45,250 nt of DNA. Source: a virus. The position numbers and the translations under genes are program-made. The stretch lies in the IMG/VR virus record IMGVR_UViG_3300033151_000232, positions 1 to 45,250 of that record. The stretch is one strand, 5' to 3'. Within the stretch, counting starts at the first letter, position 1. Each line of letters begins with the position of its first letter. The notes under the pieces were generated by a model, which was not told the DNA's origin, did not search any database, and saw nothing but the letters and a program-made list of their open reading frames with translations. Positions 2,476 through 44,510 of this stretch are shown here, piece by piece.

Positions 2476-2826
2476 ATGAACGCGACATTTAGAGTATTTA
2501 ACAATGTAATGCAAGACCAGGCAGAAGTCCAGGCTAAGGCCATTATGGTTATGGTTAAAGACCTATTATCAGAATACGATCTAACGTCAGAGGTCCAGTT
2601 AGAGACAACAGAGGAGGAGCCCATGAACCAGTATAAAATCCGCCTTAGTGGGTTTTCGAAAACTTACCAACCCACATACAAGGTCGAGTTGGACAGAGGA
2701 GATTGGAGTCTAAGGTTATCTACTATGTATTTAGAGTTATCAGAATTCTCTGCTAGAGACAAAGGAATACTCCTATTGATCCAGGCGGACATAGAGCAAT
2801 ACCTTGAAATGTTTAATAACGACTAA
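2476..2826 (+). CDS. Unrecognised 116-aa protein
   Basis: The predicted pattern is helix (residues 1-35), then a beta-rich centre (YKIRLSGF, YKVELDRGDWSLRLS), then a C-terminal helix ending in FNND. It is soluble, acidic and without known motifs. The gene lies between two small genes of the same operon with spacers of 3 and 11 nt. Function is unknown. Confidence 0.72.
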   Translation: MNATFRVFNNVMQDQAEVQAKAIMVMVKDLLSEYDLTSEVQLETTEEEPMNQYKIRLSGFSKTYQPTYKVELDRGDWSLRLSTMYLELSEFSARDKGILLLIQADIEQYLEMFNND

Positions 2827-2837
2827 AGGAGAAAGAC

Positions 2838-3125
2838 ATGGAATCTATATTTATGGAATACAAGAAAGCAAAGGTCCTGGTTGTCCTAACAAGGTCCGCA
2901 ATAATGGGTTGGATAGGACATCGGGAAGCTCTCGATGGCATAGGGCTAGAACGGGATTTAAGGAACATAACTAAGGAGTTATGTTTAGAGGCCAAGAAGT
3001 GGCCCTACAAGACATACCAACCGAATCGCCCTACTGACGATATCAAGCTAACAGACCGGGAGGATATCCTAGTACAAATGTTTATGGATAGCCAAAAGGT
3101 TATAGAAGCATTCGAAGGAAGATAA
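2838..3125 (+). CDS. Unrecognised 95-aa protein
   Basis: A strong Shine-Dalgarno-like AAAGGAGAAAGAC precedes the ATG. The product has an amphipathic N-terminal half and a polar C-terminal half with a helical end (DSQKVIEAFEGR). It is the last gene of the first operon; a stem-loop follows at 3150-3178. No function can be assigned. Confidence 0.72.
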   Translation: MESIFMEYKKAKVLVVLTRSAIMGWIGHREALDGIGLERDLRNITKELCLEAKKWPYKTYQPNRPTDDIKLTDREDILVQMFMDSQKVIEAFEGR

Positions 3126-3149
3126 GAATACAGGGGAATACCCCGCTAG

Positions 3150-3178
3150 AACAGCAATGTTATCACAATATTGCTGTT
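3150..3178 (+). terminator. Stem-loop after the first operon
   Basis: AACAGCAAT (3150-3158) pairs perfectly with ATTGCTGTT (3170-3178) around an 11-nt loop. The sequence after the stem is T-rich but broken by G (TGTTTGTGTG), so termination strength is uncertain. A small GGGG-AATA-CCCC hairpin sits just upstream at 3133-3144. Confidence 0.5.
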
Positions 3179-3191
3179 TGTTTGTGTGTAC

Positions 3192-3223
3192 CTTGCAACC
3201 AGTCAAATAATGTATTATATTTG
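3192..3223 (+). promoter_or_regulatory. Bacteroidota-type promoter upstream of 3315
   Basis: A -33 element CTTG (3192-3195) and a -7 element TATATTTG (3216-3223) fit the Bacteroidota consensus TTTG / TAnnTTTG with a 20-base spacer. This would start transcription near 3230 and give a leader of about 85 nt. The leader contains a small CCGCT/AGCGG hairpin just after the start site. It also argues against the longer upstream starts of the 3315 gene, which would overlap the promoter. Confidence 0.6.
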
Positions 3224-3314
3224 TACTGCCGCTTTTATAGCGGTTAAGGGGTGGTGTACTAATCCTCAAGCGGGTAAACCAAGTGGGGAAGGAATAACTA
3301 ACAAATACCAATCG

Positions 3315-4055
3315 ATGGAGAAGAAGAATAGACAGGTGATTATAATAAGGAAAGCCCGACCAAGGGGTTTTACGAATGTTTGCAGGTCGCAATCTAGAGA
3401 TACGATATTTGATACTGCGATCAAGGAGTTCCTAGCCGGGAATTTACCAGATGCAGTAGCCTTATCCGCCATGGAGTTCTCCACGCTGTACAGAATACCC
3501 TATCAGATGGTAGCTGCTAGAATCAAAGATGGGCTTGCTTCCGAACTGTTACAAGGAGGGGATATAAAGAAGACACTAGAAGAAGAAAGGTTAAAGCTCC
3601 TCTCGTCATCCCTTTATAGAATAGGCGATTCCGACCTACAGCTTCAACGTCTCGTTTCCCACCTCGCCCGCCGAGTCGCCCAGAACCCGAAGGCCTGGCC
3701 CGATCTAATCAAGGAACTCAACTCAGCGATAGGCAACCAGATCAAGCTTACCGAAACCGGCTTCAAGGCTATAACCCTACTCAACCAAGCCCTAGCCACT
3801 GTCCCAGAGGATTCCCTAGAGATCACCGAGAAGGATCTAACCAGGGACCAAATCCTAACCGTGATAGACAAAGCTCACCCGGAACAGGACTTCTCCCAAT
3901 ACCTAGAACAGACACCAATCATCTCTCCCCATAACCTAGGGACCGGGAAGAGGACCACCAAGTCCCTAAAGATTGCAGAGAGCCACGAATTCAATAAGGC
4001 CCAGGAGATCGATCCCGTTAAAATCCACCAAGAGATCACAGTTACCCCACGTTAA
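3315..4055 (+). CDS. Possible DNA-binding protein, candidate terminase small subunit
   Basis: The frame is open from a TTG at 3171, but that region contains a stem-loop and a promoter, so the ATG at 3315 is preferred (246 aa). The N-terminus is basic. Around residues 35-65 a segment with the rhythm of a helix-turn-helix appears (AVALSAMEFSTLYRIPYQMVAARI). A long helical region, probably an oligomerisation domain, follows at about 75-150, then a polar C-terminus. This order resembles terminase small subunits, but the gene is about 10 kb upstream of terL, so the assignment is only a suggestion. The 3600-4050 part is clearly richer in GC than its neighbours. A DNA-binding regulator is an equal alternative. 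Confidence 0.55.
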   Translation: MEKKNRQVIIIRKARPRGFTNVCRSQSRDTIFDTAIKEFLAGNLPDAVALSAMEFSTLYRIPYQMVAARIKDGLASELLQGGDIKKTLEEERLKLLSSSLYRIGDSDLQLQRLVSHLARRVAQNPKAWPDLIKELNSAIGNQIKLTETGFKAITLLNQALATVPEDSLEITEKDLTRDQILTVIDKAHPEQDFSQYLEQTPIISPHNLGTGKRTTKSLKIAESHEFNKAQEIDPVKIHQEITVTPR

Positions 4056-4215
4056 GCAGGAAATAAATTACTGCTTACGTCGAGCTATGTACTGAGGAAC
4101 GATCGTTCGAAGAAACGCTTAATAGGGAAACGCTTTAGTGAGGAGACGAGGAAGTGAAGAAACGGCCACCAAGGATTTCCATCCCTTCTTTTTATCTCAA
4201 AAGGTTTATCCTATT
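4056..4215 (+). other. Structured non-coding region
   Basis: No gene is supported here. The first 25 bases form a hairpin that overlaps the 3315 gene's stop (TTAAGCAG / CTGCTTA). A perfect 12-bp palindrome GAACGATCGTTC lies at 4097-4108, GAAACGCTT occurs twice close together, and a 16-base block (4147-4162, CGAGGAAGTGAAGAAA) is identical to one at 5999-6014. AAGGAT / ATCCCTT followed by CTTTTT near 4172-4194 looks like a terminator. A small RNA or a protein-binding site is possible. Confidence 0.4.
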
Positions 4216-4265
4216 TCATTTGCAACTTAAGATCCCTTTTATTATATTGCAATAATTAATTAAAT
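4216..4265 (+). promoter_or_regulatory. 50-bp promoter-like repeat, copy 3
   Basis: This third copy matches copies 1 and 2 across TTATTATATTGCAATA and AATTAATTAAATA, with small changes in the 5' part (CATTTGCAACT). It lies 19 nt before the ATG at 4285, more than 3 kb from the other copies, so the similarity is unlikely to be simple local duplication. Confidence 0.6.
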
Positions 4266-4284
4266 AATAATAAAAAGGGAAATT

Positions 4285-4764
4285 ATGGAAGTACAAGGAA
4301 CAGGTTTTAAATTCGTTTTTAACAAGTCGGAAGCACTTACAACAAACGAACCTGCCAAGCGGGGCAGAAGAAAAGGAACTAAAGCTAAGAAGCAGAAGTC
4401 ACCAGGAGATTACTCTAAGGAGATATTCGATGCACTTAAAGAATCGGAGATGGGAGACTCAGTATTTCTCAACCAGTACATTCGATCAAGGGTTGCAACT
4501 AAGGCCCGGAGGCAATTAAATACACTGGAAAAAATCAATCGGAACCAAGCTATTGAGAAGGCTAAAAAGGCAGAGTTAAATAAGAAGGAGATCATCGCTA
4601 GATTCAATACAAAGGACTTTATCATGGTATTCTGGGAACTGAATAACGGGACGATTTACAAGGAAGTACACTGCAGGCCAGGGCTTAAAATAGGCTTGGA
4701 TGATAAACTCCAAGAAATAGAGGTAGGGTTTAAGGTTAACAACGATAAATACTCGGTATCATGA
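4285..4764 (+). CDS. Basic protein with AT-hook-like segment, unrecognised family
   Basis: The 159-aa product has a basic stretch at residues 25-38 (KRGRRKGTKAKKQK) resembling an AT-hook or nuclear-type basic patch, then a helical region rich in Lys and Arg (KARRQLNTLEKINRNQAIEKAKKAEL), then a beta-like C-terminal domain. Nucleic-acid binding is the most economical inference. It is driven by promoter-like repeat copy 3, and its TGA overlaps the ATG of the next gene (ATGA), so the operon continues. Confidence 0.72.
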   Translation: MEVQGTGFKFVFNKSEALTTNEPAKRGRRKGTKAKKQKSPGDYSKEIFDALKESEMGDSVFLNQYIRSRVATKARRQLNTLEKINRNQAIEKAKKAELNKKEIIARFNTKDFIMVFWELNNGTIYKEVHCRPGLKIGLDDKLQEIEVGFKVNNDKYSVS

Positions 4765-4967
4765 TGCAGGGTTTCACAGAATTCTTAAGGGAGATGAGGA
4801 TATTAGAAGCTCTCTCTAAGATCCGGCAATCACAAGATAAGATAAGGGATAGAACCCTCCAAGCTTCCCCAAAGAAGCTAAAGGATCCAGTAGTACCAAA
4901 GTACAGAACCTTCCCCAGGAAGGGATCAGAGAACAGGATAAACCAAAATAGGAAGGATAAGTTATGA
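4761..4967 (+). CDS. Unrecognised 68-aa basic protein
   Basis: It starts within the stop of the preceding gene (ATGA overlap) and ends with another ATGA overlap with the 31-aa gene that follows. The product is short, basic and low in hydrophobic residues in its C-terminal half (RTFPRKGSENRINQNRKDKL), so that part may be disordered or bind nucleic acid. Function is unknown. Confidence 0.55.
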   Translation: MMQGFTEFLREMRILEALSKIRQSQDKIRDRTLQASPKKLKDPVVPKYRTFPRKGSENRINQNRKDKL

Positions 4968-5059
4968 ACATCACATGTATAATTATTCTAGGATCATTTG
5001 TAATCCTAGTAGCAGCAGGTCCGCTATTCCAATCGATACTAAAACAGTGGAGAGGATAG
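4964..5059 (+). CDS. 31-aa single-span membrane peptide
   Basis: This short frame starts at the ATG that overlaps the upstream TGA and stops 1 nt before the next ATG at 5061. It encodes one hydrophobic segment (IIILGSFVILVAAGPLF) followed by a basic tail (SILKQWRG), typical of a tiny inner-membrane peptide with the tail in the cytoplasm. Its perfect fit between two genes in overlapping or abutting arrangement supports it. A role in membrane effects or superinfection control is possible but only inferred. Confidence 0.55.
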   Translation: MNITCIIILGSFVILVAAGPLFQSILKQWRG

Positions 5060-5060
5060 G

Positions 5061-5498
5061 ATGGAACTAACAATTAAGAAAAGAAAAACCCAAGAATGGT
5101 ACCTCAAGGCAATAACATCTGCAGAGGTAACCATCCATAGGTACCAATACGCAATAGAACTAATAGAGTCAGACATCAACATAAAGCATGTATTTAACGA
5201 ACTGAACCTACTATCTAGAAGGGGATGTAAGTACTGTACGGTATTCTATGAAGACTCTACTATCAAGAACAGCCTTCACCTATGCACCCTCTGCCCAATG
5301 TACCAACCGCCCAAGGTAGTAGGTCCCAGCTGGAACCGGGCAGTATCCCCTGTCACCACTTGCTCTAACCATATCACATTCCAGAGGATCTCTCATGCCC
5401 CAACGGTAGGAGATCCCTTACCCATGATCCAAGCCATTAAGGCAAGGATATCATATCACAAAGGATTAATAACAAGGATGAAAAAGAAACTATTATGA
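5061..5498 (+). CDS. Putative zinc-binding 145-aa protein
   Basis: The product carries CKYC (C56, C59), CTLC (C75, C78) and C101-x2-H104, a spacing typical of a structural zinc site. The N-terminal 50 residues are helical and the C-terminus ends in a basic helix (YHKGLITRMKKKLL). I do not recognise the family. The gene abuts the preceding peptide gene (1 nt) and overlaps the following one by 4 nt (ATGA), so it is an inner gene of the 4285-5689 operon. DNA or RNA binding is plausible. Confidence 0.68.
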   Translation: MELTIKKRKTQEWYLKAITSAEVTIHRYQYAIELIESDINIKHVFNELNLLSRRGCKYCTVFYEDSTIKNSLHLCTLCPMYQPPKVVGPSWNRAVSPVTTCSNHITFQRISHAPTVGDPLPMIQAIKARISYHKGLITRMKKKLL

Positions 5499-5689: not shown

Positions 5690-6050
5690 GAGATAGGGTT
5701 CCATAACCCTTCCTTAGATAAGGCAACAGGTTAAGGGCATCCCATCCTTATCCTGGCCTTGTCGTGTTTACGGAAGGCCATAGCTATAGACCGCTATATT
5801 ATACTATAAGTATTTGTGCTATGTATATGCAGTAAGTAAGCATACTTAAGCTAACCATGGCTATCCCTACATATATCCCTAAGCATTCTGGTAGTGCATT
5901 AGTTGTATCATAAAAGCAGAGAGGTTCATGGCGGTAGTCAGAGCTAAGCACCCTGGTCACGTAGGCTCGAAGTTATGTATTTAAAGGGACGGATGTAGCG
6001 AGGAAGTGAAGAAAGCGCCACTGATGGAGGTTACTCCGATTAGTAGAGCC
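5690..6050 (+). other. Non-coding stretch with several stem-loops
   Basis: No convincing gene is present. Visible structures are AGGGTT/AACCCT at 5695-5710 and TGGCCTT/AAGGCCA at 5754-5780. The block CGAGGAAGTGAAGAAA at 5999-6014 is identical to 4147-4162. I looked for a tRNA T-arm and found no match. The length and structure suggest an untranslated RNA, a packaging or replication site, or decayed sequence; none can be chosen from sequence alone. Confidence 0.4.
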
Positions 6051-6182
6051 ATGTGGGGAGGCTACCGATGTCGGGAAGAATCGCCGACCGGGCGAGCTAT
6101 CAGAACTAAGGACGTAATGTGGGGAGGCTACCGATGTCGGGAAGAATCGCCGACCGGGCGAGCTATCAGAACTAAGGACGTA
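6051..6182 (+). repeat. Exact 66-bp tandem duplication
   Basis: Two directly adjacent copies, 6051-6116 and 6117-6182, are identical across 66 bp. The unit is GC-rich compared with the sequence that follows and contains small inverted repeats such as TCGCC/GGCGA. Since 66 is a multiple of three, the duplication keeps a GTG-started frame (6006-6215) open, but that frame has no gene-like context. A perfect match implies a recent duplication or an active repeat-binding site. Confidence 0.9.
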
Positions 6183-6411
6183 AGGGCGGAAATGCGGAAA
6201 TTAATAAATTTTTAATATATACATAACGGTTAAACGAGTATATTAATAAAAATAATTTATTTTGCTTTTAAGATACTTTTTTTATTAATTAATATAATGT
6301 ACTAAAATAATAATTGAGTAGCTTAAAAGTAAATTAAAAGCTATTCTAATCTAAATTAATACATTTGTTCAGTTAGTTATTTATTTATTTAATCAAAAGT
6401 TTTTTTATTTA
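6183..6411. other. AT-rich non-coding start of the low-GC island
   Basis: Composition changes abruptly near 6200 to very AT-rich sequence, and no gene is seen until 6613. A hairpin based on AGCTT / AAGCT lies near 6330. I found no flanking direct repeat or integrase that would define an insertion. Confidence 0.5.
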
Positions 6412-6444
6412 TTTGTTATTTGTATTAAAATTTTATTATCTTTG
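6412..6444 (+). promoter_or_regulatory. Bacteroidota-type promoter of the AT-rich island
   Basis: A -33 TTTG (6412-6415) and a -7 TATCTTTG (6437-6444) with a 21-base spacer match the Bacteroidota housekeeping promoter. The leader is about 165 nt and includes a small GAGT / ACTC hairpin around 6450-6475. The promoter type differs from the 50-bp phage-like repeats, in line with a separate origin of this island. Confidence 0.6.
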
Positions 6445-6612
6445 TAAAAGTAGCGAGTGAAAAATTTACTCACAGTTCTTTAAATCCTTGAATATCAAAA
6501 CTTTAGAGATTAAAGTGTAAAATTTGACAAATAGAAAAATAGTTTTATAAGTATTTTTTGACTATATATTAATAAAAAGTACATTTTATTTATTTATTCT
6601 AAAATTATAATT

Positions 6613-6879
6613 ATGAAAAATTTTAAATTTAACAAGACAGAAAAATTAGTTGAAGTGAGTGACGAAAATCTAACTTTCAAAAAACTATATGCTTATCTAA
6701 AAAAAGAAAAAATTTCTTTTAATGGCAATAGTTTAAGAAAAAATTTTCGTAAACTAAAATACACTAATAATTTAGTTGCTATGTGCTTAAATAGTGGGTT
6801 TTATGAAGATAATAAAAATAAAACTAAGTTTGAGCCGCACAAAGATAAATTTGATGCTTTCTTAAAAGCGAATAAATAA
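6613..6879 (+). CDS. Unrecognised 88-aa basic protein of the AT-rich island
   Basis: This is a Lys- and Asn-rich soluble protein with helical segments (FKKLYAYLKKEKISFNGNSLRKNFRKLK). Base composition is far more AT-rich than in the neighbouring phage genes. It has its own promoter and is followed directly by a strong terminator, so it is a single-gene transcript. The pattern is loosely that of a small DNA-binding protein, but I do not recognise a family. Confidence 0.65.
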   Translation: MKNFKFNKTEKLVEVSDENLTFKKLYAYLKKEKISFNGNSLRKNFRKLKYTNNLVAMCLNSGFYEDNKNKTKFEPHKDKFDAFLKANK

Positions 6880-6891
6880 ATTTTCTTTAAG

Positions 6892-6928
6892 AAGTAAGCT
6901 ATTAATTTAGCTTACTTTCTTTTTTTAT
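6892..6928 (+). terminator. Rho-independent terminator
   Basis: AAGTAAGCTA (6892-6901) pairs with TAGCTTACTT (6908-6917), followed by TCTTTTTTT. It closes the 6613-6879 gene and may reduce read-through into the next two genes. Confidence 0.8.
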
Positions 6929-6951
6929 AAATTATTCAAATATTATAAATT

Positions 6952-7311
6952 ATGAAAACATTAATTTTATTAAATAGATTACAAATTAAAGTTTTGTATA
7001 ATAAACTTTTTTCTTTACAAGAGTATTCAAAAAAAGAAAAAAAAAGTATTAAAATTTTTATCCGAACTAATTTTACAAAGTTTAGTATTATTAGTCTAAG
7101 TAATAATACTAATAATTTTAATATTTTTTTATTTATGAATATTTTACAAATTATCAAAATAGAAAAAACTTTTATTATTCAGTATTTAGAATTACTAAAA
7201 AAAATAAGTAATTCTAAAATAAAAAAGCTACAAAAAAATCTTAATTATAGAGATAATTTAGATTTACAGGAAGCACAAAAAAGATTCTTACAAACATTAC
7301 AAACATTTTAA
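6952..7311 (+). CDS. Unrecognised 119-aa protein of the AT-rich island
   Basis: The product is Lys-, Ile- and Asn-rich, largely helical, with a hydrophobic centre (FNIFLFMNILQIIKI) that could be a buried helix or a weak membrane segment. The extreme AT bias inflates Lys, Asn and Ile and makes pattern reading unreliable. The following gene starts 4 nt after its stop, so the two form an operon. Function is unknown. Confidence 0.55.
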   Translation: MKTLILLNRLQIKVLYNKLFSLQEYSKKEKKSIKIFIRTNFTKFSIISLSNNTNNFNIFLFMNILQIIKIEKTFIIQYLELLKKISNSKIKKLQKNLNYRDNLDLQEAQKRFLQTLQTF

Positions 7312-7314
7312 GTT

Positions 7315-7725
7315 ATGGAAACAAAACAAAAAAACATTATCGCAAAGTTTGAAGATTTAAACGAATGGAAAAAAGACATGTTATTTTATTTTAACGTATC
7401 AAAAGACAGTTTAAAAGTTAAAGACAGTCTGAATTTGCACGTTCAGGCTATTGATAATATAAAAGATGAGCATGGAGACACTAATTTTTATAATGAGTGT
7501 ACTCAACTACCCGAATTACTAGCACAAATTAAAAATTTTAATTCAGGTACATTTATGTTTATTAATCCAAGTGATTTAGCAAAAAATAATTGGAATACAG
7601 ACTATATTTTGCAAGTAAATGAATTAAAAATGTATGCCAGTAGCTTGTTTAATCAAATACAAGAACTTAACAGAAATATGAATAATTTAGAAAGTTTTTT
7701 AAACGATTTAAATTATTCATTATAG
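7315..7725 (+). CDS. Unrecognised 136-aa protein of the AT-rich island
   Basis: This soluble protein has helical N- and C-terminal parts; the C-terminus (LFNQIQELNRNMNNLESFLNDLN) looks like a short coiled coil. No catalytic motif is visible. The gene follows 6952-7311 directly and is closed by the terminator at 7756-7790. A two-gene cargo unit, for example of a defence or toxin-antitoxin type, is conceivable but unsupported. Confidence 0.62.
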   Translation: METKQKNIIAKFEDLNEWKKDMLFYFNVSKDSLKVKDSLNLHVQAIDNIKDEHGDTNFYNECTQLPELLAQIKNFNSGTFMFINPSDLAKNNWNTDYILQVNELKMYASSLFNQIQELNRNMNNLESFLNDLNYSL

Positions 7726-7755
7726 TTTAATTAAAAGCAAATTATTAATTAAATT

Positions 7756-7790
7756 AAAAGCAAACTATTTATTTAGTTTGCTTTTTTTTG
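7756..7790 (+). terminator. Rho-independent terminator at the end of the AT-rich island
   Basis: AAAAGCAAACTA (7756-7767) pairs with TAGTTTGCTTTT (7774-7785) and continues into a T run. A related half-site AAAAGCAAATTA lies just upstream. Composition returns to normal GC within about 40 bases, so the terminator marks the island edge. Confidence 0.82.
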
Positions 7791-8094
7791 TACCCTATTT
7801 TTTTATTTAGATTCATTCCAAATATAGCCACCGCCTCCCCCGCCGCCAGCCCCATCCTTATACGCGACGAGAAACCAGGTCCTTATACGCGACGAGAGAT
7901 CGGATCCTTGACCAGGAGACAACTGACAAGGTCCCCGTCCCAAATATATATACACAAAAAATCCCCTATACGAGGAACGCAGAGAGATTAACAGCTATTC
8001 CGATCATAACCACCCACTCATAGCGGTTCTCCCTTACGGGATCACCAGCTACAGAGAAAGGGTAAAGCTATCAGGTAATATAACTAAGAAGGGA
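7791..8094. other. Non-coding convergence zone
   Basis: The rightward island and the leftward accessory operon meet here. No gene is convincing; the short plus frame 7788-7991 is Arg/Ser/Pro-rich and covers the repeats. The only clear structure is the 25-bp repeat array at 7855-7929. Confidence 0.45.
7855..7929. repeat. Three tandem 25-bp units, two well conserved
   Basis: Units start at 7855, 7880 and 7905. The first 18 bases of units 1 and 2 (TCCTTATACGCGACGAGA) are identical; unit 3 keeps only TCCTT and a purine-rich part. With three decaying copies and no spacer structure this is not a CRISPR. It may be an iteron-like protein-binding array or a slipped duplication. Confidence 0.7.
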
Positions 8095-20844: not shown

Positions 20845-21387
20845 ATGGCTTCAACTACTAGAGAGATCATAGATGGGATTTTATTACCCTTAACTGTAGA
20901 TAATACTAAATATGGTATTTACATTGAGAAATGGCAAAACCTCTTGTACGAAGCAGCTGAGCTGGAAGAAGCAGATTTTGAAGATGATGCTAATTGGAGC
21001 TACCTGTGGAGACTACTTAAAGCCTATCTCATAGTTAGAGACCTTGTATATGATTCTGTAAATCGTCAGATGCTCGATAACTCTGCCGGGACTATAGGAA
21101 CCGGCGCTTCGAGTTCTGGAGGAATTAAGAAAATAGAAACAGGAGTAGTTAATATCGAGAGATATGATGTTTCAACGGGAGCATCCACTCTTTACAATTC
21201 CGTATTTAATAAGTCGGGTTTATGGGAAGACATGCAAGTCCAGATATGTACACTAGCTAGGCGCTTGAAAGTCCATGTCTCAGGTTGTAAAGATATTGCT
21301 CCGGGACCCATAAGGATAATACGGGGAAGTGATTATTCCTATGAAGACCAATACCCTCAAACCCCTGCTTCAACCCTTAAACCATGA
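20845..21387 (+). CDS. Head-tail connector (adaptor-like) protein
   Basis: The 180-aa protein has a helical N-terminal half (IYIEKWQNLLYEAAELEEADFEDDANWSYL, split by short turns) typical of gp6/gp15-like adaptors that sit below the portal, followed by a Gly-rich loop and a beta/helix C-terminus. Its stop overlaps the following gene's ATG (4 nt). The assignment rests on order after the capsid gene and helical pattern. Confidence 0.62.
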   Translation: MASTTREIIDGILLPLTVDNTKYGIYIEKWQNLLYEAAELEEADFEDDANWSYLWRLLKAYLIVRDLVYDSVNRQMLDNSAGTIGTGASSSGGIKKIETGVVNIERYDVSTGASTLYNSVFNKSGLWEDMQVQICTLARRLKVHVSGCKDIAPGPIRIIRGSDYSYEDQYPQTPASTLKP

Positions 21388-21839
21388 TAAGCCAAGCCGA
21401 ATGGGATCAGTTCGCTAATGACCTCAAAGCTTTCAATGATGAAGTAGCTAACCAAGAAGTAACTTGGAAAGTTCCTATTATTAAGTTACCCAGGTTTAAC
21501 GAAGACCCTACTCCCACGTATGAATCCCGATCTTTACGGTGTTTAGTTTCTTACAACGCTTTCCGAGTATGGCCCATGGATCGAGAGACGGAACCAGGTG
21601 CTGTTGATAAGCAATACCTTTACTTACTTTTAAACCACCAATACCTGGCAGATAACGGGTGGTTAACTGCTAATAAGAATTTCGATTTTAACCCAAACCA
21701 AGACATATTCATAGTAAATGGGATGGAACATACTTCTTCTGGAGATACCCCCGTATCCGCTGAGAAATCATTTCCCCTATATTCCATTGTAGTCTTAGAA
21801 CGTAAAACCACAGCAACAAGTAGTAAATCACGACCTTAA
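21384..21839 (+). CDS. Head completion / stopper-like protein
   Basis: The 151-aa product is beta-rich (RSLRCLVSYNAFRVWPM, DIFIVNGMEHT, FPLYSIVVLERK), as are stopper proteins that close the portal channel and bind the tail. It overlaps the adaptor gene by ATGA and precedes the membrane-anchored/receiver pair by 10 nt. The family cannot be named with certainty; the position supports a neck role. Confidence 0.55.
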   Translation: MISQAEWDQFANDLKAFNDEVANQEVTWKVPIIKLPRFNEDPTPTYESRSLRCLVSYNAFRVWPMDRETEPGAVDKQYLYLLLNHQYLADNGWLTANKNFDFNPNQDIFIVNGMEHTSSGDTPVSAEKSFPLYSIVVLERKTTATSSKSRP

Positions 21840-21849
21840 AAAGATAGCA

Positions 21850-22455
21850 ATGGAAGAAACTCTTATTAGTGGTAGTTATGATACCATAGCAACCATTTTC
21901 GCCTTAATTCTGTTTTATCTTGTTAAATACACCATAGAATGGTGGAATAAAAAGAAAGCCCAACCCCTAGCTCTTCAAGAAATGGACCATGACCGTAGAA
22001 TGCACCAAGATATTGCAGATAATTTAATAAGGATTGAGAGCTTTCTATCCATAGCTTCAAACGAGTATAGTAGAACCCCTCCCCTTGATACGATAAAAGC
22101 TATATCCGAGAGGATGTTTCGATTAGCCCGTTATGCCATATACATGGGAGTAACGGATCTTCTAACAGAAGAACTCAATTGGGGAAATCAACATGTTAGA
22201 GAAAGATTTTTCCAACAGGTGGATGACATGGTAGAAAACATATACAATAACGACTGTAATTTCATGAAGCAGTTTGAATATGAGAGTTTACCTTTATCGG
22301 ATCTAATGAATGAGAGTTGGAAAGGTACAGTAATTACTACTTGCCGTACTTTCGTAGCTAACCATTATGACCATGGGAATAATTATATAGTTTTTGCAAG
22401 GAATTTGAAGAATGATTTTGAAAGGATAAGTTATGAATTTAAGTCTAAGTTATGA
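21850..22455 (+). CDS. Membrane-anchored helical protein with HisKA_3-like segment
   Basis: The 201-aa protein has one hydrophobic helix (residues 12-31, TIATIFALILFYLVKYTIEW) and a long helical remainder. Residues 49-62 (RRMHQDIADNLIRI) resemble the phospho-accepting H-box of HisKA_3 kinases, R-x-L-H-D-x-L-x-Q-x-L-x-x-I, with His52 in the right place; no ATPase domain follows. The stop overlaps the ATG of the receiver-domain gene (ATGA), so both are made together. It could be a His-phosphotransfer-like partner or scaffold of that receiver. The H-box match is by eye and may be chance; a neck/tail membrane protein is the alternative. Confidence 0.5.
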   Translation: MEETLISGSYDTIATIFALILFYLVKYTIEWWNKKKAQPLALQEMDHDRRMHQDIADNLIRIESFLSIASNEYSRTPPLDTIKAISERMFRLARYAIYMGVTDLLTEELNWGNQHVRERFFQQVDDMVENIYNNDCNFMKQFEYESLPLSDLMNESWKGTVITTCRTFVANHYDHGNNYIVFARNLKNDFERISYEFKSKL

Positions 22456-22823
22456 ATAAGACCGTTTTAATAGTAGAGGATGAACCTATAACCCAGAAAT
22501 TACTATCTACTATTTGCGAAAGAAAGGGCTTTAAAGTTGTTATCGTTGATAATGCTAAAGACGCAGTTAGAGAAGCGAAGGCCCGAAAGCCTTTCCTATC
22601 TATAGTAGATATGGAATTAAAGTGTAGTCGAGGGATAGATTTTATAAACAAGATAAAAGTTGGCCTAGGACTAGATACAAAAATTATTGTCCATTCCGGT
22701 AACCTAGAGATATTTAGGTATTGGAAGGATCTTAGTTATGAAGCAGAATTAGAACTAGAAAAGGGAGTTCCCTCTAACTATCGAGTACTAAACTCATTCC
22801 TAGCTAAAGCCCAAGCCCTATAA
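22452..22823 (+). CDS. Stand-alone CheY-like response-regulator receiver domain
   Basis: The 123-aa protein shows the receiver pattern in full: beta1 with acidic pair (VLIVEDEP, E9-D10), beta3 with phospho-acceptor D53 (LSIVDMEL), beta4 with S82 (KIIVHSGN) and conserved K104 (LEKGVP). There is no output domain. Receivers of this type normally accept a phosphate from a His kinase and switch a partner. It is most unusual inside a phage neck module, coupled to a membrane-anchored protein. It could intercept host signalling or serve as a structural fold. Confidence 0.85.
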   Translation: MNKTVLIVEDEPITQKLLSTICERKGFKVVIVDNAKDAVREAKARKPFLSIVDMELKCSRGIDFINKIKVGLGLDTKIIVHSGNLEIFRYWKDLSYEAELELEKGVPSNYRVLNSFLAKAQAL

Positions 22824-22826
22824 GTT

Positions 22827-23396
22827 GTGGAATCTCTACGTAGTACCCTAGGGAATATCCCTAATCCACTAGACTCTCTAGAAGTATCTCAAGATGGAGA
22901 ATGGAGAAAATTAAGGAAGGTTATAAACTATATGTCCGGTTCGGGTTTCGGTCAGGGCATAAAAAGAGACATAGCAAAAGCTCAAAGAGATTGGTTGACT
23001 AAGATGAAAGGGTTATTAGTAAAAACCTTACTATCAAAAGGAGCATCATCCGGTAAATCCTTCCCCCCTCTTAGTTCTGGGTATTCCCGAAGGAGGGAAA
23101 TGGGAGTACACTCAGGCCATTACCTAAACTCTCTCCAAGCTATAAAAATAATACAAAAGAACTACAATGTATCCTTATTCATTCCTCGAGGGATGGTTTT
23201 AGCTAAACCTCAAGGGGGGTATACTCTTGGACAGTATGCTGCGATCTTTGAAGCAGGATCTTCTCGTCAACCACCAAGACCTTTATGGAATCAGACCTAC
23301 GCTAAGATGGGGGGACCTAAGGGAGTTTTAAAAGTAATGAACGGGGCGATCGGTAAACGTTTAAGAAGTATGGGAGTTAAAATAAGAGTTAGATAA
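22827..23396 (+). CDS. Tail completion / neck protein (Mu gpG or HK97 gp10-like)
   Basis: It starts with GTG 4 nt after the receiver gene. The 189-aa product contains an RDIAKAQRDWLTKMKG-like helix, then SSGKSFPPLSSGYSRRREMG and GSSRQPPRPLWNQTY, a pattern found in phage virion-morphogenesis proteins that join head and tail. The following gene starts 1 nt from its stop. The assignment rests on the FPPLSSGYSRR and PPRPLW elements and on position. Confidence 0.7.
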   Translation: MESLRSTLGNIPNPLDSLEVSQDGEWRKLRKVINYMSGSGFGQGIKRDIAKAQRDWLTKMKGLLVKTLLSKGASSGKSFPPLSSGYSRRREMGVHSGHYLNSLQAIKIIQKNYNVSLFIPRGMVLAKPQGGYTLGQYAAIFEAGSSRQPPRPLWNQTYAKMGGPKGVLKVMNGAIGKRLRSMGVKIRVR

Positions 23397-35884: not shown

Positions 35885-38800
35885 ATGAAAAAAATACTAT
35901 TAATACTTCTGATATTCTGTATGGGTATCTCAGTATTTTCCCAAACTCGAGTTCGCCCCCGAGAATTATCTACAGAGAGTACTATAACGGGTGCAGAGGT
36001 TTTCTTGTTGGACCGTTCGGACTATGGCTCATCAACCTTTAAGAAGATGTCTATTGAGGCTATTACTACTTATGTTTTATCTAATTCTGACTATAGTGGG
36101 GTAACCCTGGAGTTTGTAAGGCAAAATGGTAATACCCTGGATGGCCCTGTTATATTTAACGATAACATTACAATACCAACAGGTGCTGCCGATGGCATGT
36201 TTTGGCGTTCCAATGGTTCAGGATTGGGATCTTGGGCTTACCCGTTTTATATACAGGACGGTGATGGGTTTTCTATAACGAGTGGAGGTACATCTTATCA
36301 GAAAAAAGGAGAATTTACTCCTTGGACTATCCCGACTCAGTCAAACCCACAGGCTAATCTTATTAGCTTTCCGGTAGATTATAACAGTAGTGCTAAGCTC
36401 TTAACCTTTCAACAAGTATTTACCTTATTAAACACTGAACAGGCCTTTATGGAATTGTTTCCTGAGACTTCAATTCTTATGTGGCAAACGGGGGGTTGGA
36501 GTGGTACTACTCTCCCATCCATCGGAGTAAAATTATTTGATGGTGGAAGTATCCCCATAACCCTAGTTCCTGGTGATGAGAGCGATTTCGAATATGGAGA
36601 AGCTAATTCCACTAATTGTACTATGGCCTTTGTATCAATATCCGACAATACTTTATTCCTTGAGCCCACTATTACAACTTCCAATCAAGATCCGATATCC
36701 GTAATAATAACCCACACACCTTCGGGAGTGTCCAAGACCTGGTATGTTCAGTGGAGTAATACGGGACCCGGTGGCGGTGAACCGGGGATTAGGACAGAGA
36801 ACCTAGAAGATTTAGCAGTAGAAACTATTAAGATTGATAATGATGCTATAACCGAAATGAAGATATGGGGATTAGAAGCGGGTATTAGTGGGGATATAGT
36901 AATGTCCAATGGGGGTGGGGCTTTTATGTACGGCTCTGAATCTGATCCTGTTTATACAGCTTGGGATAAGGATTATGATGATCTTACTAACACTCCCACT
37001 ATCCCTAGTGGAGATCAGATTATCGACTGGACTATAAGTCAAGCTATCTCCCATATCCATGAAGATAATTATACTGATAACATTGGAACAGACGACCAAA
37101 CAGCAGAAGAAGTTTACTTAGACGGTTACGTAATTCCTGAGGCTACGGGGGCTATCGGAACAGACGATGCTGTACAAGTAGCTATTGGAAAGTTAGAAAA
37201 GGGCTTAGAAGATGCTACACAGGGGGGCGGAGATGTAAACGTACAATCGGATTGGGATCAGTCCGATACAGGTTCGGATGATTTTATTAAGAATAAACCA
37301 ACTATCCCAAGCGGTAATGCTATTCTGGATTGGACTACTGATCAAGGGGCTACTGATATCCATGCCGGAAACTACACTGATACGGACACTCAACTATCGG
37401 ATGGGGACGTTGGAGCTTTTGGTTACATAAAAAATGCAGATGAAACAGATCAAGTATGGGTAAGTGATAGTGTTACTTATGCTGCTAAGTCTTGGGTTAA
37501 GGAAAGAATAAAAGACAGCTTGGAAGGTAGAGTATGGGGTAATCCAGTTCTTGTAGATGTTACAGGAACAGATACTACTAATTGGGGGGTGCAATCTTCT
37601 GGACTTTATCAAATAACAGAAGATGGTAAAACAGGCTGGGTTCCTATTGGTGATGATAGAACTATGAAAGGGAATACCGGGGAAAAGGCTTGGGATTTAA
37701 GTTATTCTGATTTTTCTGGTGATACTTGGGGTGCTAAAGGACTTCATTCTTTTGCAACAGGATATCTTACATCAGCTACAGGAATAGCTTCTTTTGCAGA
37801 GGGTAGTACAACAGTAGCATCTGGCGCTTCATCACACGCAGAGGGTTCTTGGGGAGAAGCTATAGGTGCTTCATCACACGCAGAAGGATATTGGGGATTT
37901 GCAATTGGTCATTATTCTCACGTAGAGGGACAACAAAACTATGCTTATGGTATAACATCTCACGCAGAGGGATACTTCACGATAGCAAGAAATGACAATT
38001 CACATTCTGGAGGAAAGAATACAATAGCAAATAATGATAATCAAAGAACTATAGGACAGTTTAATGATACTACTAATACTCTTTCTATTTTTGACATAGG
38101 AATAGGTACCGCTAATGATGCCAGACTAGATGCTCTTGAAATAGAAACTAATGGTAAAATTTATGCCTGGGGATTAGATGTTGGGGAAATAACAGACGAT
38201 AAACAATTAATCACAAAAGAATATGCAGAAGCTAACTTTGGGGGACTATCCGATGCTCCCAGTAATGGGTCATTATATGGAAGGCAAGATGCTGCTTGGG
38301 CGTTAATCCCGGCAGGTACGAATTGGGAAAATGATTTGTCTCCCGCGGTTATCCACGCAAATAATTATGTAGATAATAATACTCAACTTTCTGATGGGGA
38401 TGTAGGAGCTTTTGGTTACATTAAAAATGCAGATGAGACGGATCAAGTATTTGTAGCTTGGGATAAGGATTACGATGATCTTACTAACACTCCCACCATT
38501 CCTTCAGGTAACCAAATTATTGATTGGACTACAGACCAAGGAGGGACGGATATCCATGCTGGTAATTATACAGACAATAATACAACATACTCGGAAGCCC
38601 AACTGGACCAGGACGATGTCACCCTATTGGATATCCAAACTGCCACTATCAGTGATTTCCATAACATAGGAGGGACAGATGATATCCTGACTGATGGAGA
38701 GATCGGAGCTATGGGTTATATTAAATCCTATACTGACGACCAAGATTTAATAATGACCGGGGATGTCCTCTCTATCGAAGGAGGGCAGGGCTCAGTAGAT

Positions 38801-39337
38801 CTCGCTACTTATGTAGATGATGCGGATGCGGATGCTTCAAATGAACTACAGAATATCGACGGCTCAGTATTAACAGGAACGGTATTAACTATAGGAATAG
38901 CAAACGGTACTAATGAAGATGTAGAGCTAAGCAGTTTAGTTGGTTCAGACGATCAGACTGGTAGTGAAGTATCCCTAGTGGTAACAGAGTTTAACGGTAA
39001 TCTTTCTAGTGCTGATACTGATGTTCAAAAGGCTTTAGAAACTTTAGATAACATGGCAGGGGGTGGTAGTGTACCAGAAGCTCCTATCGATGGTTCAACC
39101 TACGGAAGGAAAGATGCAGATTGGGAAGCCATCGTTATTCCTTTAGCAGAGATTTTTGAAAAGACCTTAACGGATGCAGAAAATGATATCCCAATAGGCT
39201 TCACACTTAAAACTACTTCCTTAGTCTTCTTTAATGGGGATTTGATAAGGAGTTCTTCATGGAGCGGGGTGGGAACGTCTACCATAAACTTAAGCTTAGA
39301 TACTAAGATATACGATAAAATAACAATTAAAAATTAA
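35885..39337 (+). CDS. Large tail fibre with signal peptide and YadA-like beta-roll
   Basis: The 1150-aa protein begins with a signal peptide (KKILLILLIFCMGISVFSQ, cleavage before or at Gln). It has internal repeats such as AWDKDYDDLTNTPTIPSG (DNA near 36959 and 38456) and QLSDGDVGAFGYIKNADETD (near 37390 and 38383), typical of modular fibres. A YadA-like roll (GASSHAEGSWGEAIGASSHAEG, about residues 630-710) and two copies of the common fibre element APxxGSxYGRxDA (near 38246 and 39075) are present. It probably contacts the host surface. A Sec signal on a phage fibre is unusual. Confidence 0.85.
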   Translation: MKKILLILLIFCMGISVFSQTRVRPRELSTESTITGAEVFLLDRSDYGSSTFKKMSIEAITTYVLSNSDYSGVTLEFVRQNGNTLDGPVIFNDNITIPTGAADGMFWRSNGSGLGSWAYPFYIQDGDGFSITSGGTSYQKKGEFTPWTIPTQSNPQANLISFPVDYNSSAKLLTFQQVFTLLNTEQAFMELFPETSILMWQTGGWSGTTLPSIGVKLFDGGSIPITLVPGDESDFEYGEANSTNCTMAFVSISDNTLFLEPTITTSNQDPISVIITHTPSGVSKTWYVQWSNTGPGGGEPGIRTENLEDLAVETIKIDNDAITEMKIWGLEAGISGDIVMSNGGGAFMYGSESDPVYTAWDKDYDDLTNTPTIPSGDQIIDWTISQAISHIHEDNYTDNIGTDDQTAEEVYLDGYVIPEATGAIGTDDAVQVAIGKLEKGLEDATQGGGDVNVQSDWDQSDTGSDDFIKNKPTIPSGNAILDWTTDQGATDIHAGNYTDTDTQLSDGDVGAFGYIKNADETDQVWVSDSVTYAAKSWVKERIKDSLEGRVWGNPVLVDVTGTDTTNWGVQSSGLYQITEDGKTGWVPIGDDRTMKGNTGEKAWDLSYSDFSGDTWGAKGLHSFATGYLTSATGIASFAEGSTTVASGASSHAEGSWGEAIGASSHAEGYWGFAIGHYSHVEGQQNYAYGITSHAEGYFTIARNDNSHSGGKNTIANNDNQRTIGQFNDTTNTLSIFDIGIGTANDARLDALEIETNGKIYAWGLDVGEITDDKQLITKEYAEANFGGLSDAPSNGSLYGRQDAAWALIPAGTNWENDLSPAVIHANNYVDNNTQLSDGDVGAFGYIKNADETDQVFVAWDKDYDDLTNTPTIPSGNQIIDWTTDQGGTDIHAGNYTDNNTTYSEAQLDQDDVTLLDIQTATISDFHNIGGTDDILTDGEIGAMGYIKSYTDDQDLIMTGDVLSIEGGQGSVDLATYVDDADADASNELQNIDGSVLTGTVLTIGIANGTNEDVELSSLVGSDDQTGSEVSLVVTEFNGNLSSADTDVQKALETLDNMAGGGSVPEAPIDGSTYGRKDADWEAIVIPLAEIFEKTLTDAENDIPIGFTLKTTSLVFFNGDLIRSSSWSGVGTSTINLSLDTKIYDKITIKN

Positions 39338-39341
39338 AACT

Positions 39342-40313
39342 ATGAAAAGGATACTGATTACTATGGGTATTATCTTAATGAGTGTATTAGGGTATTCTCA
39401 AGCAACAAACGTTGCAGACTTCCGTATTACGAACGCCATTACGGCATTCGGGGTTAATCTTCCAATTGGGACAAAGGTTTATAACATTGATACAGAAGAA
39501 TACTGGGTTGCCACTGCGGGAGTAGCTAATAACCTTACTCTGACCACGGGTAGTGCTTCTTTTACCCTTGTTGGAAAACAGGTTATTGATGTTCTCAACT
39601 TGAACGGGACGGATTTAGAAATAAGTCTATCGAATGATGGGGTTGCAACAGAAACTCTAGACCTATCTTCATTACAAGATGGAACCGGAACGGATGATCA
39701 AACTATTGATGTATCGAATTTGACAGGAACGGTATTACATCTAAGTTTAGAGAATGATGGAGAAGCAGATATAGAAATCGAATTATCTTCATTGCAGGAT
39801 GGAACTGGGACAGATAACCAGACTGCTTCAGAAGTTCCCGTTACAGCTACGGGATTTGGCGGTAATCTGACAACAGGTGCAACAGATGTACAAACAGCAT
39901 TACAGGAGATAAACGATCTATCCCTAGCGGGAGCCCCAACTACTTTAGATATCACTACTAAGACAGCAAATACATTTGACATAGAGTCTGACGGTACGGA
40001 CATTACTTTACCCGCTTCTACTACTGATGATGCCGGTTTAATGACTGCCAGTCAATACGATAAGTTGGATGGAATAGAGGCTCTGGCTGAGGTTAACTAC
40101 ACTTCATTTACTCAGTTATTTGAAGAAGACGACCCCACTCCCACTCCTCATACTCTAACCTACACAGCCACTGATCTAACCGGTGCCCGAGTATCTGTAA
40201 ATGGGGCAACACTAGATCCCAGTTTATATACATTATCAACTACTGAGTTAACCCTAGATGGTCCAGTTTACCAATGGGACCAAGTAATTATCACCTATAC
40301 TCACGCTGAATAA
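39342..40313 (+). CDS. Fibre/adhesin-like protein with signal peptide
   Basis: The 323-aa protein begins MKRILITMGIILMSVLGYSQ. Residues 25-80 (FRITNAITAFGVNLPIGTKVYN) match the N-terminal module of the genes at 40325 and 44511. The middle has SSLQDGTGTDDQT repeats and a TGFGGNLTTGATDVQTALQEIN element also found in the 35885 fibre. The C-terminus is a small beta domain (GARVSVNGATLDPSLYTLS). It starts 4 nt after the previous stop. Confidence 0.75.
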   Translation: MKRILITMGIILMSVLGYSQATNVADFRITNAITAFGVNLPIGTKVYNIDTEEYWVATAGVANNLTLTTGSASFTLVGKQVIDVLNLNGTDLEISLSNDGVATETLDLSSLQDGTGTDDQTIDVSNLTGTVLHLSLENDGEADIEIELSSLQDGTGTDNQTASEVPVTATGFGGNLTTGATDVQTALQEINDLSLAGAPTTLDITTKTANTFDIESDGTDITLPASTTDDAGLMTASQYDKLDGIEALAEVNYTSFTQLFEEDDPTPTPHTLTYTATDLTGARVSVNGATLDPSLYTLSTTELTLDGPVYQWDQVIITYTHAE

Positions 40314-40324
40314 ACAAGAATAAG

Positions 40325-43045
40325 ATGAAAAAGTTATTTATAATACTCATATTCCTTATACCGGCAGTCCTCCATGCTCAATTGTCGAGGGTCCCCGTTA
40401 AGAGAGTAACTAACGCAACTACAGTATTCTCTGAAAGTATCGCAGTAGGAACTCAGATATACGATATGAATGCAGAGAGGTTATACATAGCTACAGAGGG
40501 AGTAGTTTCTACTGGGACTCTATCTAATAATTCTTCTTCTTTCTTATACCTAGAGGACATTGACTGGGATCTTATGGATAATTCTTATCTTGATCGCAGT
40601 GCTTGGAATGGTACTTTTCAGGAGTCCTTTAATGCTTACGTATCCAGTAACGGTACAGTTCTTACTATGAGTTTACAAAGTGTCTTAAGCGGGGATTTAA
40701 CTATGCAATTTAGTGATGGGCTTCTAGTGTTGGACTGCGACCCTGCTAAAACTATAGAATTAACTGAAGGAACAGCAACGAGTCCCCAATCTAACTACGT
40801 ATACATCCCTCGTTCATCTAAGGTTTTAACCCTAAGTACTACTGGCTGGCCATCCACAGAACACATCAAGGTATCTTACTTCCTTGTTCAGGATGCTACT
40901 ACAGTACAGAATTCTGGTGCCCTAATTAATCAGAACTGGAACGATGAACTTTCCAACCCCATTGATAATATGGGTCACATTACTCACATAGGGCAATGGG
41001 TAAGAAGTAGGGGAGCTAATTGGTTTAGTGGTTGTGATGGAGGAGGAACGGGAGGTGAATACATTAATCTCTACGCTGGCGGCGGTACGTTCCATGTAAA
41101 TGCAGGAGTAATAATGCAAATGCACAAACACAGCTACACTGCTAAGAATACATCCACTACAGATGAAGCCCACTGTGCTAACTACCCTAGCGAAGCATTT
41201 AAAACAGTAACCGACCTTAATGAGATGCTGATAGATGCGCTAGGGGGAAGTTTAACAGGAAGATATTATAATATTATCATTGCGGGCGTTGCGAATAAGG
41301 GGGGTGAATATTCTCCACTAATGATCAAGCTTCCTCAAGGAAGCTATAACAGTAGCGAAAATGCGATTAAAGATATTGATGGTTACGATAATTACCAAAT
41401 GCCGAGAGAATTTAATAAAGAAAGTTCCACAGGGTTTTTGATTGCGAGAATCACTATAAGGAATCAGGGTGATGCTACGTTTACTATAGAGAACACCCAG
41501 GATTTAAGAGGGTTGATTGGGGCAACGGCTAGTGGAAGTACAGGCGGTACTACCTTAATGGAGTATTCGGATTCCCAATTTAGGATATATAATAATATAA
41601 ATGCCACTAAGGTTGTTTCTTTCGATGTAAGTGGAGTTACAGCAGGTAATACCCGGGCCATGGGAATTCCCGATGAGGATGGGACCCTAGCTTTAGAAGA
41701 AAACATAATTGATTGGGAAGTAAACCAGGAGACAGCCCACGTTATACATGTTGGGAATTATGTTGATAATGTAGATGATGCAGATGCTAGTATCACTAAC
41801 GAGATCCAGGATATCTCGGGCTCAGTATTAACGGGAACTCTTTTAACCATAGGGATCGATGGGGGATCAAATGAAGATGTAGAACTATCTTCCTTACAAG
41901 ATGGGACAGGGTCAGATACCCAGGACCTAAGTTGGAATAGTGGTACTCACTCAGTAGACATAACTACTGGATCAGATGCGGTTATACCCATTGCTTCAAC
42001 ATCAGTAATAGGATTATTGCCTACGGCTAAGTGGGATGAGATAGTGGTTAATAACGGTAAAATAAGCTATACTGATGCTTCCGATGTAGGTTCAAATACT
42101 TCCTTTAGGACTACTCCTAGTACTATTATTACTGCAGGATCAAATCTTACTTGGGATGGGAATATTCTTAATGCTACGGGGGATGGAACAGGAACAGATT
42201 CTCAAACTTTAACTTGGACTGACGGAACAGACAACCTAGCTATTAGTGGAGGGAATAATGTTACTATAGATGGTTTTGCCCCAAGTCTAGGAGCCGACGA
42301 TAACTACGTTACCGATTCGGAACTTACCATAGTACAAGCAACATCTGGAGCAAATTCAGGCGATAACGCTACCAATACTCAATACTCTGGACTTGTAACA
42401 AACGCTAATCATACTGACGAAGTAACCGGAAGTGGAGCTTTAACAATTACAGACAATGTAGTTGATGAGGCCAATTTAAAAATAAGTAATACTCCATCTA
42501 ACGGAGACTATTTACAGTATGCGGATGGCACAGACCAATTAACATGGGATGCTATTACTGGCGGAGGTAATGTATCAAATACTGGAACACCAGTAAATAA
42601 CCAAGTTGCTATATGGACTGATGCTACTACTTTAGAGGGTGATGCTGATCTAACTTTTGATGGAACAGATTTACTTATTGGTGGAGATATAAAAGCTAAG
42701 ACACAAACGAATACGGTACTTAATGGAAGTCAGACAGCAGATTTTTCACATGATGCTGCTAGTGGGGATATAGGAGCTTATCAAGTAAATAAAGGATCAT
42801 TAACACTTAGTATTCATAATCTTTCAAGCGGTATGCAAGGGACTATCTTTTTAGATTTTCATACTACTACTGTAACGGGATTAACCGTTAATACATTTTC
42901 TGATGCTGGTTCTACTGGATTAACAGAAATTGTTTTGGGAAGTGCAAGTGCCCCTGCCATTAATTTAATGACATCTGTAACATATACTTGCGCCTATGAT
43001 GGTACGAATACATACGTTGCTTTGGTTTACGGACAAGAAGAATAA
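40325..43045 (+). CDS. Large fibre/adhesin-like protein with signal peptide
   Basis: The 906-aa protein starts MKKLFIILIFLIPAVLHAQ and shares the N-terminal module (VTNATTVFSESIAVGTQIYD) with 39342 and 44511. The first half contains GGGTFHVNAGVIMQMHKHSYT and a Gly-rich beta segment typical of receptor-binding fibres; the second half has ISGSVLTGTLLTIGIDGGSNEDVELSSLQDG-type fibre repeats and a beta C-terminus (GTIFLDFHTTTVTGLTVN). It probably forms a secondary fibre or surface adhesin. The family is not certain. Confidence 0.75.
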   Translation: MKKLFIILIFLIPAVLHAQLSRVPVKRVTNATTVFSESIAVGTQIYDMNAERLYIATEGVVSTGTLSNNSSSFLYLEDIDWDLMDNSYLDRSAWNGTFQESFNAYVSSNGTVLTMSLQSVLSGDLTMQFSDGLLVLDCDPAKTIELTEGTATSPQSNYVYIPRSSKVLTLSTTGWPSTEHIKVSYFLVQDATTVQNSGALINQNWNDELSNPIDNMGHITHIGQWVRSRGANWFSGCDGGGTGGEYINLYAGGGTFHVNAGVIMQMHKHSYTAKNTSTTDEAHCANYPSEAFKTVTDLNEMLIDALGGSLTGRYYNIIIAGVANKGGEYSPLMIKLPQGSYNSSENAIKDIDGYDNYQMPREFNKESSTGFLIARITIRNQGDATFTIENTQDLRGLIGATASGSTGGTTLMEYSDSQFRIYNNINATKVVSFDVSGVTAGNTRAMGIPDEDGTLALEENIIDWEVNQETAHVIHVGNYVDNVDDADASITNEIQDISGSVLTGTLLTIGIDGGSNEDVELSSLQDGTGSDTQDLSWNSGTHSVDITTGSDAVIPIASTSVIGLLPTAKWDEIVVNNGKISYTDASDVGSNTSFRTTPSTIITAGSNLTWDGNILNATGDGTGTDSQTLTWTDGTDNLAISGGNNVTIDGFAPSLGADDNYVTDSELTIVQATSGANSGDNATNTQYSGLVTNANHTDEVTGSGALTITDNVVDEANLKISNTPSNGDYLQYADGTDQLTWDAITGGGNVSNTGTPVNNQVAIWTDATTLEGDADLTFDGTDLLIGGDIKAKTQTNTVLNGSQTADFSHDAASGDIGAYQVNKGSLTLSIHNLSSGMQGTIFLDFHTTTVTGLTVNTFSDAGSTGLTEIVLGSASAPAINLMTSVTYTCAYDGTNTYVALVYGQEE

Positions 43046-43056
43046 AATTTAGAGAT

Positions 43057-44495: not shown

Positions 44496-44510
44496 AATAT
44501 AAATAACTAT

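What the first reader, a model, noticed from the sequence alone, without database searches (positions are those of the whole stretch)
21850..22823. Membrane-anchored protein plus stand-alone receiver domain inside the phage neck module
The 22452 product has all key receiver residues (E9-D10, D53, S82, K104) and nothing else. Its gene overlaps by ATGA with a one-span protein carrying RRMHQDIADNLIRI, which resembles a HisKA_3 H-box with His52, but without an ATPase. The pair lies between head-completion and tail-completion genes. That could be a phage phosphorelay that reads or hijacks host two-component signalling, or a virion or assembly role for the receiver fold. I know of no described phage system of this layout.
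Basis: partly seen in the sequence, partly recalled or inferred. Interest (0 to 1): 0.8.

Follow-up and report, generated by a model that had tools for sequence, protein, structure and literature searches.

The report
Phage signalling-type gene pair, late operon
A tailed phage, probably of a Bacteroidota host, carries two extra genes slotted between its head and tail genes, one for a stand-alone signal-receiver domain and one for a membrane-anchored helical protein; its relatives lack both, so the pair is probably cargo aimed at the host cell rather than part of the virus particle.

Summary
The receiver is real. ORF 22452-22823 (123 aa) matches Pfam Response_reg at E=1.6e-13 and has E9-D10, D53 and S82 in place; K104 fits by spacing, though the C-terminal third is divergent. 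The 201-aa partner (21850-22455, ATGA overlap) has one N-terminal span and is predicted all-helical. It has no detectable relative in any library or collection searched. Its 'H-box' is not supported: no HisKA, HisKA_3, Hpt or ATPase match in the window even at E<=10, and the acidic residue after His is Gln. New fact: in 19 related contigs (about 15 distinct phages) the two flanking genes touch (gap -14 to +3 bp); only this window has the 987-bp insert, and none of 44 related records has a receiver. So the pair is an accessory insertion with codon usage typical of the late genes, not a core neck component. Best reading: late-expressed cargo acting on host two-component signalling, by a receiver that competes for or inhibits a host kinase, with the membrane protein as tether or effector. 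That function is inferred, not shown. Rivals: a membrane or lysis-timing module, or a Spo0B/Spo0F-like relay. Orphan receivers occur in other viral contigs, so this is a new variant, not a new kind.

The parts
21850..22455 (+). 201-aa membrane-anchored, predicted all-helical protein (one N-terminal span at about residues 12-30, cytoplasmic C-terminal part inferred; His52 at the claimed H-box)
   Evidence: ORF; hydropathy; no relative in Pfam, PHROGs, NCBIfam, PADLOC, PDB, phages, plasmids, viral or genome contigs; AF2 all-helical but pLDDT 46
22452..22823 (+). 123-aa stand-alone receiver domain (E9, D10, D53, S82, probable K104)
   Evidence: PF00072 E=1.6e-13; PDB receivers; alignments; Foldseek
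21384..21839 (+). upstream flank: conserved head-completion/neck gene (called HC2 here), conserved in relatives
   Evidence: found in 21 related contigs; no Pfam or PHROG name
22827..23396 (+). downstream flank: tail-completion gene (called TC1 here, HK97-gp10-like), directly abuts the upstream flank gene in relatives
   Evidence: weak TIGR01725 HK97-gp10 match E=0.043; conserved in relatives
21840..22826 (+). 987-bp accessory insertion holding both genes; absent in 19 related contigs (gap -14 to +3 bp)
   Evidence: junction sequences

Best explanation
The two genes are an accessory (moron-type) cargo pair in the late operon of a contractile-tailed phage of a probable Bacteroidota host. Shown: a catalytically plausible stand-alone receiver, its gene overlapping (ATGA) that of a one-span helical protein, inserted between two genes that touch in relatives. 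Inferred: the pair is made late with the virion genes. The receiver is phosphorylated by, or binds and inhibits, a host sensor kinase, like host single-domain response regulators. The membrane protein tethers it at the inner membrane or is the effector that reads its state. The result would be to damp or redirect host envelope signalling late in infection, for example stress response or surface remodelling that limits superinfection.
For: Receiver family and residues. No output domain and no kinase, HisKA or Hpt match in the window, so any phosphodonor is likely external. Insertion restricted to this phage, so not needed for assembly. Codon usage matches the late genes for both genes (z -0.48 and -0.42), so resident rather than stray. 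ATGA coupling and 3-bp spacing to the next gene show it was kept in operon. [quoted passage not shown] phage protein PIT4, which binds host kinases (PMC10714779).
Against: No homologous pair exists to show conservation of D53 or of the pairing. The partner's function is unknown. The receiver's alpha4-beta5-alpha5 region is divergent (by the ungapped register E101 sits at the aromatic-switch position), so it may not switch normally. Late expression is assumed from position, and no host is known.
Confidence: 0.38

Rival explanations
1. Membrane or lysis-timing module: the one-span protein belongs to the lysis or host-membrane cargo that such phages keep at head/tail gene boundaries, and the receiver tunes it.
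For: Relatives carry small membrane proteins at nearby boundaries: L046 11410-11694 and L048 11802-12642 before the sheath gene; L013 3378-4091, L014 159-866 and a holin-like ORF in L012 1446-1700 upstream of the tail-completion gene. No holin or cell-wall hydrolase was recognised among the window proteins scanned.
Against: The predicted topology (large cytoplasmic helical part) is not that of a known holin or spanin. No lysis family matched it. The window may be an incomplete genome, so missing lysis genes mean little.
Confidence: 0.2
2. Genuine two-protein phosphorelay: the membrane protein is a membrane-tethered DHp/Hpt-like phosphotransferase (His52) passing phosphate to or from the receiver, like Spo0B-Spo0F.
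For: Similar sizes to Spo0B-Spo0F (from memory). The model puts His52 in the first of two about 30-residue helices after the span (pLDDT only 46). A loose H-box occurs in only 1.6% of shuffles.
Against: No HisKA, HisKA_3 or Hpt match even at E<=10. The acidic residue after His is Gln. The motif was picked post hoc, and no homologue exists to show His52 conserved.
Confidence: 0.12
3. Selectively neutral or decaying passenger genes picked up by recombination between head and tail modules.
For: Found in one phage only.
Against: Both frames are intact, catalytic residues are retained, the pair is tightly spaced in the operon, and codon usage fits the late genes.
Confidence: 0.15
4. Virion or assembly role: the receiver fold is used as a neck or assembly protein.
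For: Position among neck genes.
Against: About 15 distinct relatives build the same neck without it. A membrane anchor and phospho-site residues are not expected of a neck protein.
Confidence: 0.07

Closest known systems
Single-domain response regulators (DivK, Spo0F, CheY; Osp of Rhodobacter sphaeroides)
   Same: One receiver domain, no output domain, with D/D/S and probable K site; Foldseek top hit DivK. Osp shows such a protein can inhibit a kinase directly (PMC9430884).
   Different: Phage-encoded, late operon, gene overlapping that of a membrane protein; divergent C-terminal third; no cognate kinase.
Phage modulators of host two-component systems (PIT4 of Pseudomonas phage LSL4, PMC10714779)
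   Same: Phage protein thought to act on host kinases.
   Different: PIT4 is an early protein; no receiver domain is mentioned in its abstract, and its sequence was not compared here.
cREC domains of jumbo phages (PMC7824862)
   Same: Receiver-like domain encoded in phage genomes with conserved Asp.
   Different: cREC is tied to NAD/ADP-ribose enzymes and is never in kinase systems; this one matches the ordinary PF00072 family and has no such neighbour among the flanking genes scanned.
Orphan receivers in other IMG/VR contigs (L059 5001-5372; L060 892-1305 beside a terminase)
   Same: Stand-alone receivers of 123 and 137 aa in viral contigs.
   Different: Only 31-33% identical, other genome regions, no membrane-protein partner seen.
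Spo0B-Spo0F relay pair
   Same: Small helical partner plus single receiver (sizes from memory).
   Different: No detectable sequence similarity to a phosphotransferase; membrane anchor; His52 unsupported.

Membership tests
PF00072 receiver (response regulator) domain | Profile match above the curated cut-off | tested here: met
   51.2 bits vs 30.2, E=1.6e-13
PF00072 receiver (response regulator) domain | Five catalytic residues DD, D, T/S, K (definition in PMC12632262) | tested here: inconclusive
   E9, D10, D53 aligned and S82 aligned; K104 fits by spacing and the PF00072 match end but MAFFT shifts it by two
PF00072 receiver (response regulator) domain | (beta-alpha)5 fold | tested here: inconclusive
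   Single-sequence model gives b1-a1-b2-a2-b3 plus a5; pLDDT 47; Foldseek receivers over about 55 residues
Single-domain response regulator | No output domain | tested here: met
   123 aa in all; the receiver match covers 5-105 and no other domain is seen
Single-domain response regulator | Phosphorylation by or binding to a kinase | not testable with these tools
   Needs biochemistry
HisKA_3 / HisKA phosphoacceptor (DHp) domain | Profile match | tested here: not met
   None at E<=10 in the window
HisKA_3 / HisKA phosphoacceptor (DHp) domain | H-[DE] dyad of the H-box | tested here: not met
   H52-Q53
Hpt phosphotransferase | Profile match | tested here: not met
   None at E<=10
Phage neck / head-tail connector protein | Conserved at this place in related phages | tested here: not met
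   Absent from 19 related contigs, gap -14 to +3 bp
Moron / accessory cargo gene | Extra gene between two genes that are adjacent in relatives | tested here: met
Moron / accessory cargo gene | Own promoter and terminator | tested here: inconclusive
   The sigma70-type scan finds no more than chance, and Bacteroidota promoters are not covered by it

The most novel reading that the evidence does not exclude
A phage-encoded two-protein phospho-signalling device: a membrane-tethered partner with a dedicated receiver, made late with the virion genes, that reads or drains a host kinase pathway to time lysis or block superinfection. This would be a phage signalling layout not found in the literature searched.
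Probability: 0.2. Interest if true: 0.75.

Novelty: new variant of a known kind. Interest (0 to 1): 0.48.

Why it matters
Phages are known to hit host kinases with unrelated small proteins. A phage that carries a competent-looking receiver coupled to a membrane partner inside its late operon would show direct entry into host phospho-signalling at the assembly stage. It is testable with two small proteins. It also shows that the head/tail boundary of these little-studied phages is a place where extra cargo genes are inserted.

Tried and rejected
Virion role: rejected as leading reading because relatives lack the pair. HisKA_3/Hpt for the partner: no profile support. Holin, spanin or other named family for the partner: none in Pfam, PHROGs, NCBIfam or PADLOC. 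Relatives of the partner or the receiver: none from IMG/VR, GTDB contigs or plasmids or phages (one search gives only weak receiver hits). The one significant phage hit (Komp_PAO1_1, E=9e-5) is a NarL-type host-like regulator beside phage genes, not a relative. Host prophage search by capsid protein: nothing. Partner structure: AF2 from one sequence, pLDDT 46, and its Foldseek hits are meaningless. Recent foreign DNA: codon usage gives no sign. PADLOC weak hits (PD-T4-6, SduA) only reflect receiver-like stretches of those models.

Full report
What is there. On the + strand of this IMG/VR contig, two ORFs lie between conserved head and tail genes: 21850-22455 (201 aa) and 22452-22823 (123 aa), overlapping by ATGA. 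Ten bases separate the first from the upstream gene and three separate the second from the downstream gene. The surrounding late operon holds terminase, portal, maturation protease, capsid, sheath, tube, tape measure and baseplate genes, so this is a contractile-tailed phage. Signal peptides and a weak Por_Secre_tail match on distal tail proteins, and a BspA-like LRR gene, suggest a Bacteroidota host; this is an inference.

The receiver. Pfam Response_reg matches at E=1.6e-13 over residues 5-105, and 24 PDB receivers match at E<=1e-3. D10 and D53 align invariantly with four other receivers, with S82 in the Ser/Thr column. K104 has the canonical 22-residue spacing from S82, but alignment of the last third is ambiguous. 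The segment after residue 84 is divergent, and by the ungapped register E101 occupies the aromatic-switch position. A single-sequence AF2 model (pLDDT 47) still recovers the first half of the fold and finds DivK by Foldseek. It is a stand-alone receiver that by residues could take phosphate.

The partner. One hydrophobic span near residues 12-30 is followed by a Lys cluster, so the remaining 165 residues are probably cytoplasmic (positive-inside rule). Single-sequence AF2 gives helices only, at pLDDT 46, so its fold is unknown. It has no hit in Pfam, PHROGs, NCBIfam, PADLOC or PDB and no relative in phages, plasmids, IMG/VR or GTDB contigs. The last two collections (IMG/VR, GTDB) were scanned with exact short peptides, which finds close relatives only. 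The H-box claim was tested: no HisKA, HisKA_3, Hpt or HATPase_c match in the window at E<=10; His52 is followed by Gln rather than Asp or Glu; a loose pattern chosen after the fact occurs in 1.6% of shuffles. Not supported.

Comparison with relatives. Sheath, capsid and both flanking genes were used to pull related contigs. In 19 contigs (about 15 distinct by match scores) holding both flanking genes, these touch with gaps of -14 to +3 bp; in the window the gap is 987 bp (sequences). One relative (L039) has other cargo directly after the upstream flank gene. Across 44 related records no receiver match was found at E<=1, though many are fragments. More distant relatives keep membrane proteins and other cargo at nearby boundaries: upstream of the tail-completion gene in L012-L014, before the sheath gene in L046 and L048, and glycosyltransferase-like genes in L041 and L042 (names are my reading of the sequences). 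So the pair is an accessory insertion at a boundary where cargo recurs. Its codon usage does not stand out from the late genes, arguing for residence rather than accident.

Mechanism. No output domain and no recognised kinase in the window mean that any phosphodonor is likely external, i.e. host. Single-domain response regulators work by protein binding; Osp inhibits the kinase CckA directly (PMC9430884), and a phage protein, PIT4, already targets host kinases (PMC10714779). I therefore favour a late-made receiver that competes for or inhibits a host kinase, with the membrane protein as tether or effector (0.38). The chain from 'late-made' onward is inference. A membrane or lysis-timing module (0.20), neutral passengers (0.15), a true His-Asp relay (0.12) and a virion role (0.07) follow.

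Novelty. Receivers in viruses are not new: jumbo-phage cREC (PMC7824862) and two orphan receivers met here in other viral contigs. Gut-phage spo0A homologues lack the receiver (PMC10294663). A receiver coupled to a membrane protein inside the structural operon was not found in the literature searched. I rate it a new variant of a known kind.

Noticed in passing
window 35885-45250: Consecutive distal tail or fibre-region ORFs (35885, 39342, 40325, 43057, 43530, and one starting near 44514) begin with Sec-type signal peptides in Bacteroidota style, unusual for phage tail genes.
   Followed up: partly
window 43530-44495: BspA/DUF285-type leucine-rich repeat protein at the end of the tail module; relatives L038 and L039 carry LRR-like genes right after the neck genes.
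   Followed up: no
window 2476-5498: Early-region genes have much higher GC3 (44-52%) than late genes (about 30%), with codon-usage z down to -7.4 for 3171-4055: perhaps two parts of different origin.
   Followed up: partly
window 5700-8000: Very AT-rich (23.5% GC at 6001-7500), gene-poor stretch with a perfect 66-bp tandem repeat at 6051-6183; possible origin or assembly oddity.
   Followed up: no
L041 11422-12957, L042 11441-12981: Relatives carry glycosyltransferase / ATP-grasp-like genes inserted between the tail-completion and sheath genes.
   Followed up: no
L059 5001-5372; L060 892-1305: Other stand-alone receivers in viral contigs, one beside a terminase gene: orphan receivers in phages may be commoner than described.
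   Followed up: partly
L011 5043-5624: Komp_PAO1_1 phage record: a NarL-type regulator lies on the + strand although the record annotates a hypothetical CDS on the - strand; the stretch looks like host DNA.
   Followed up: partly
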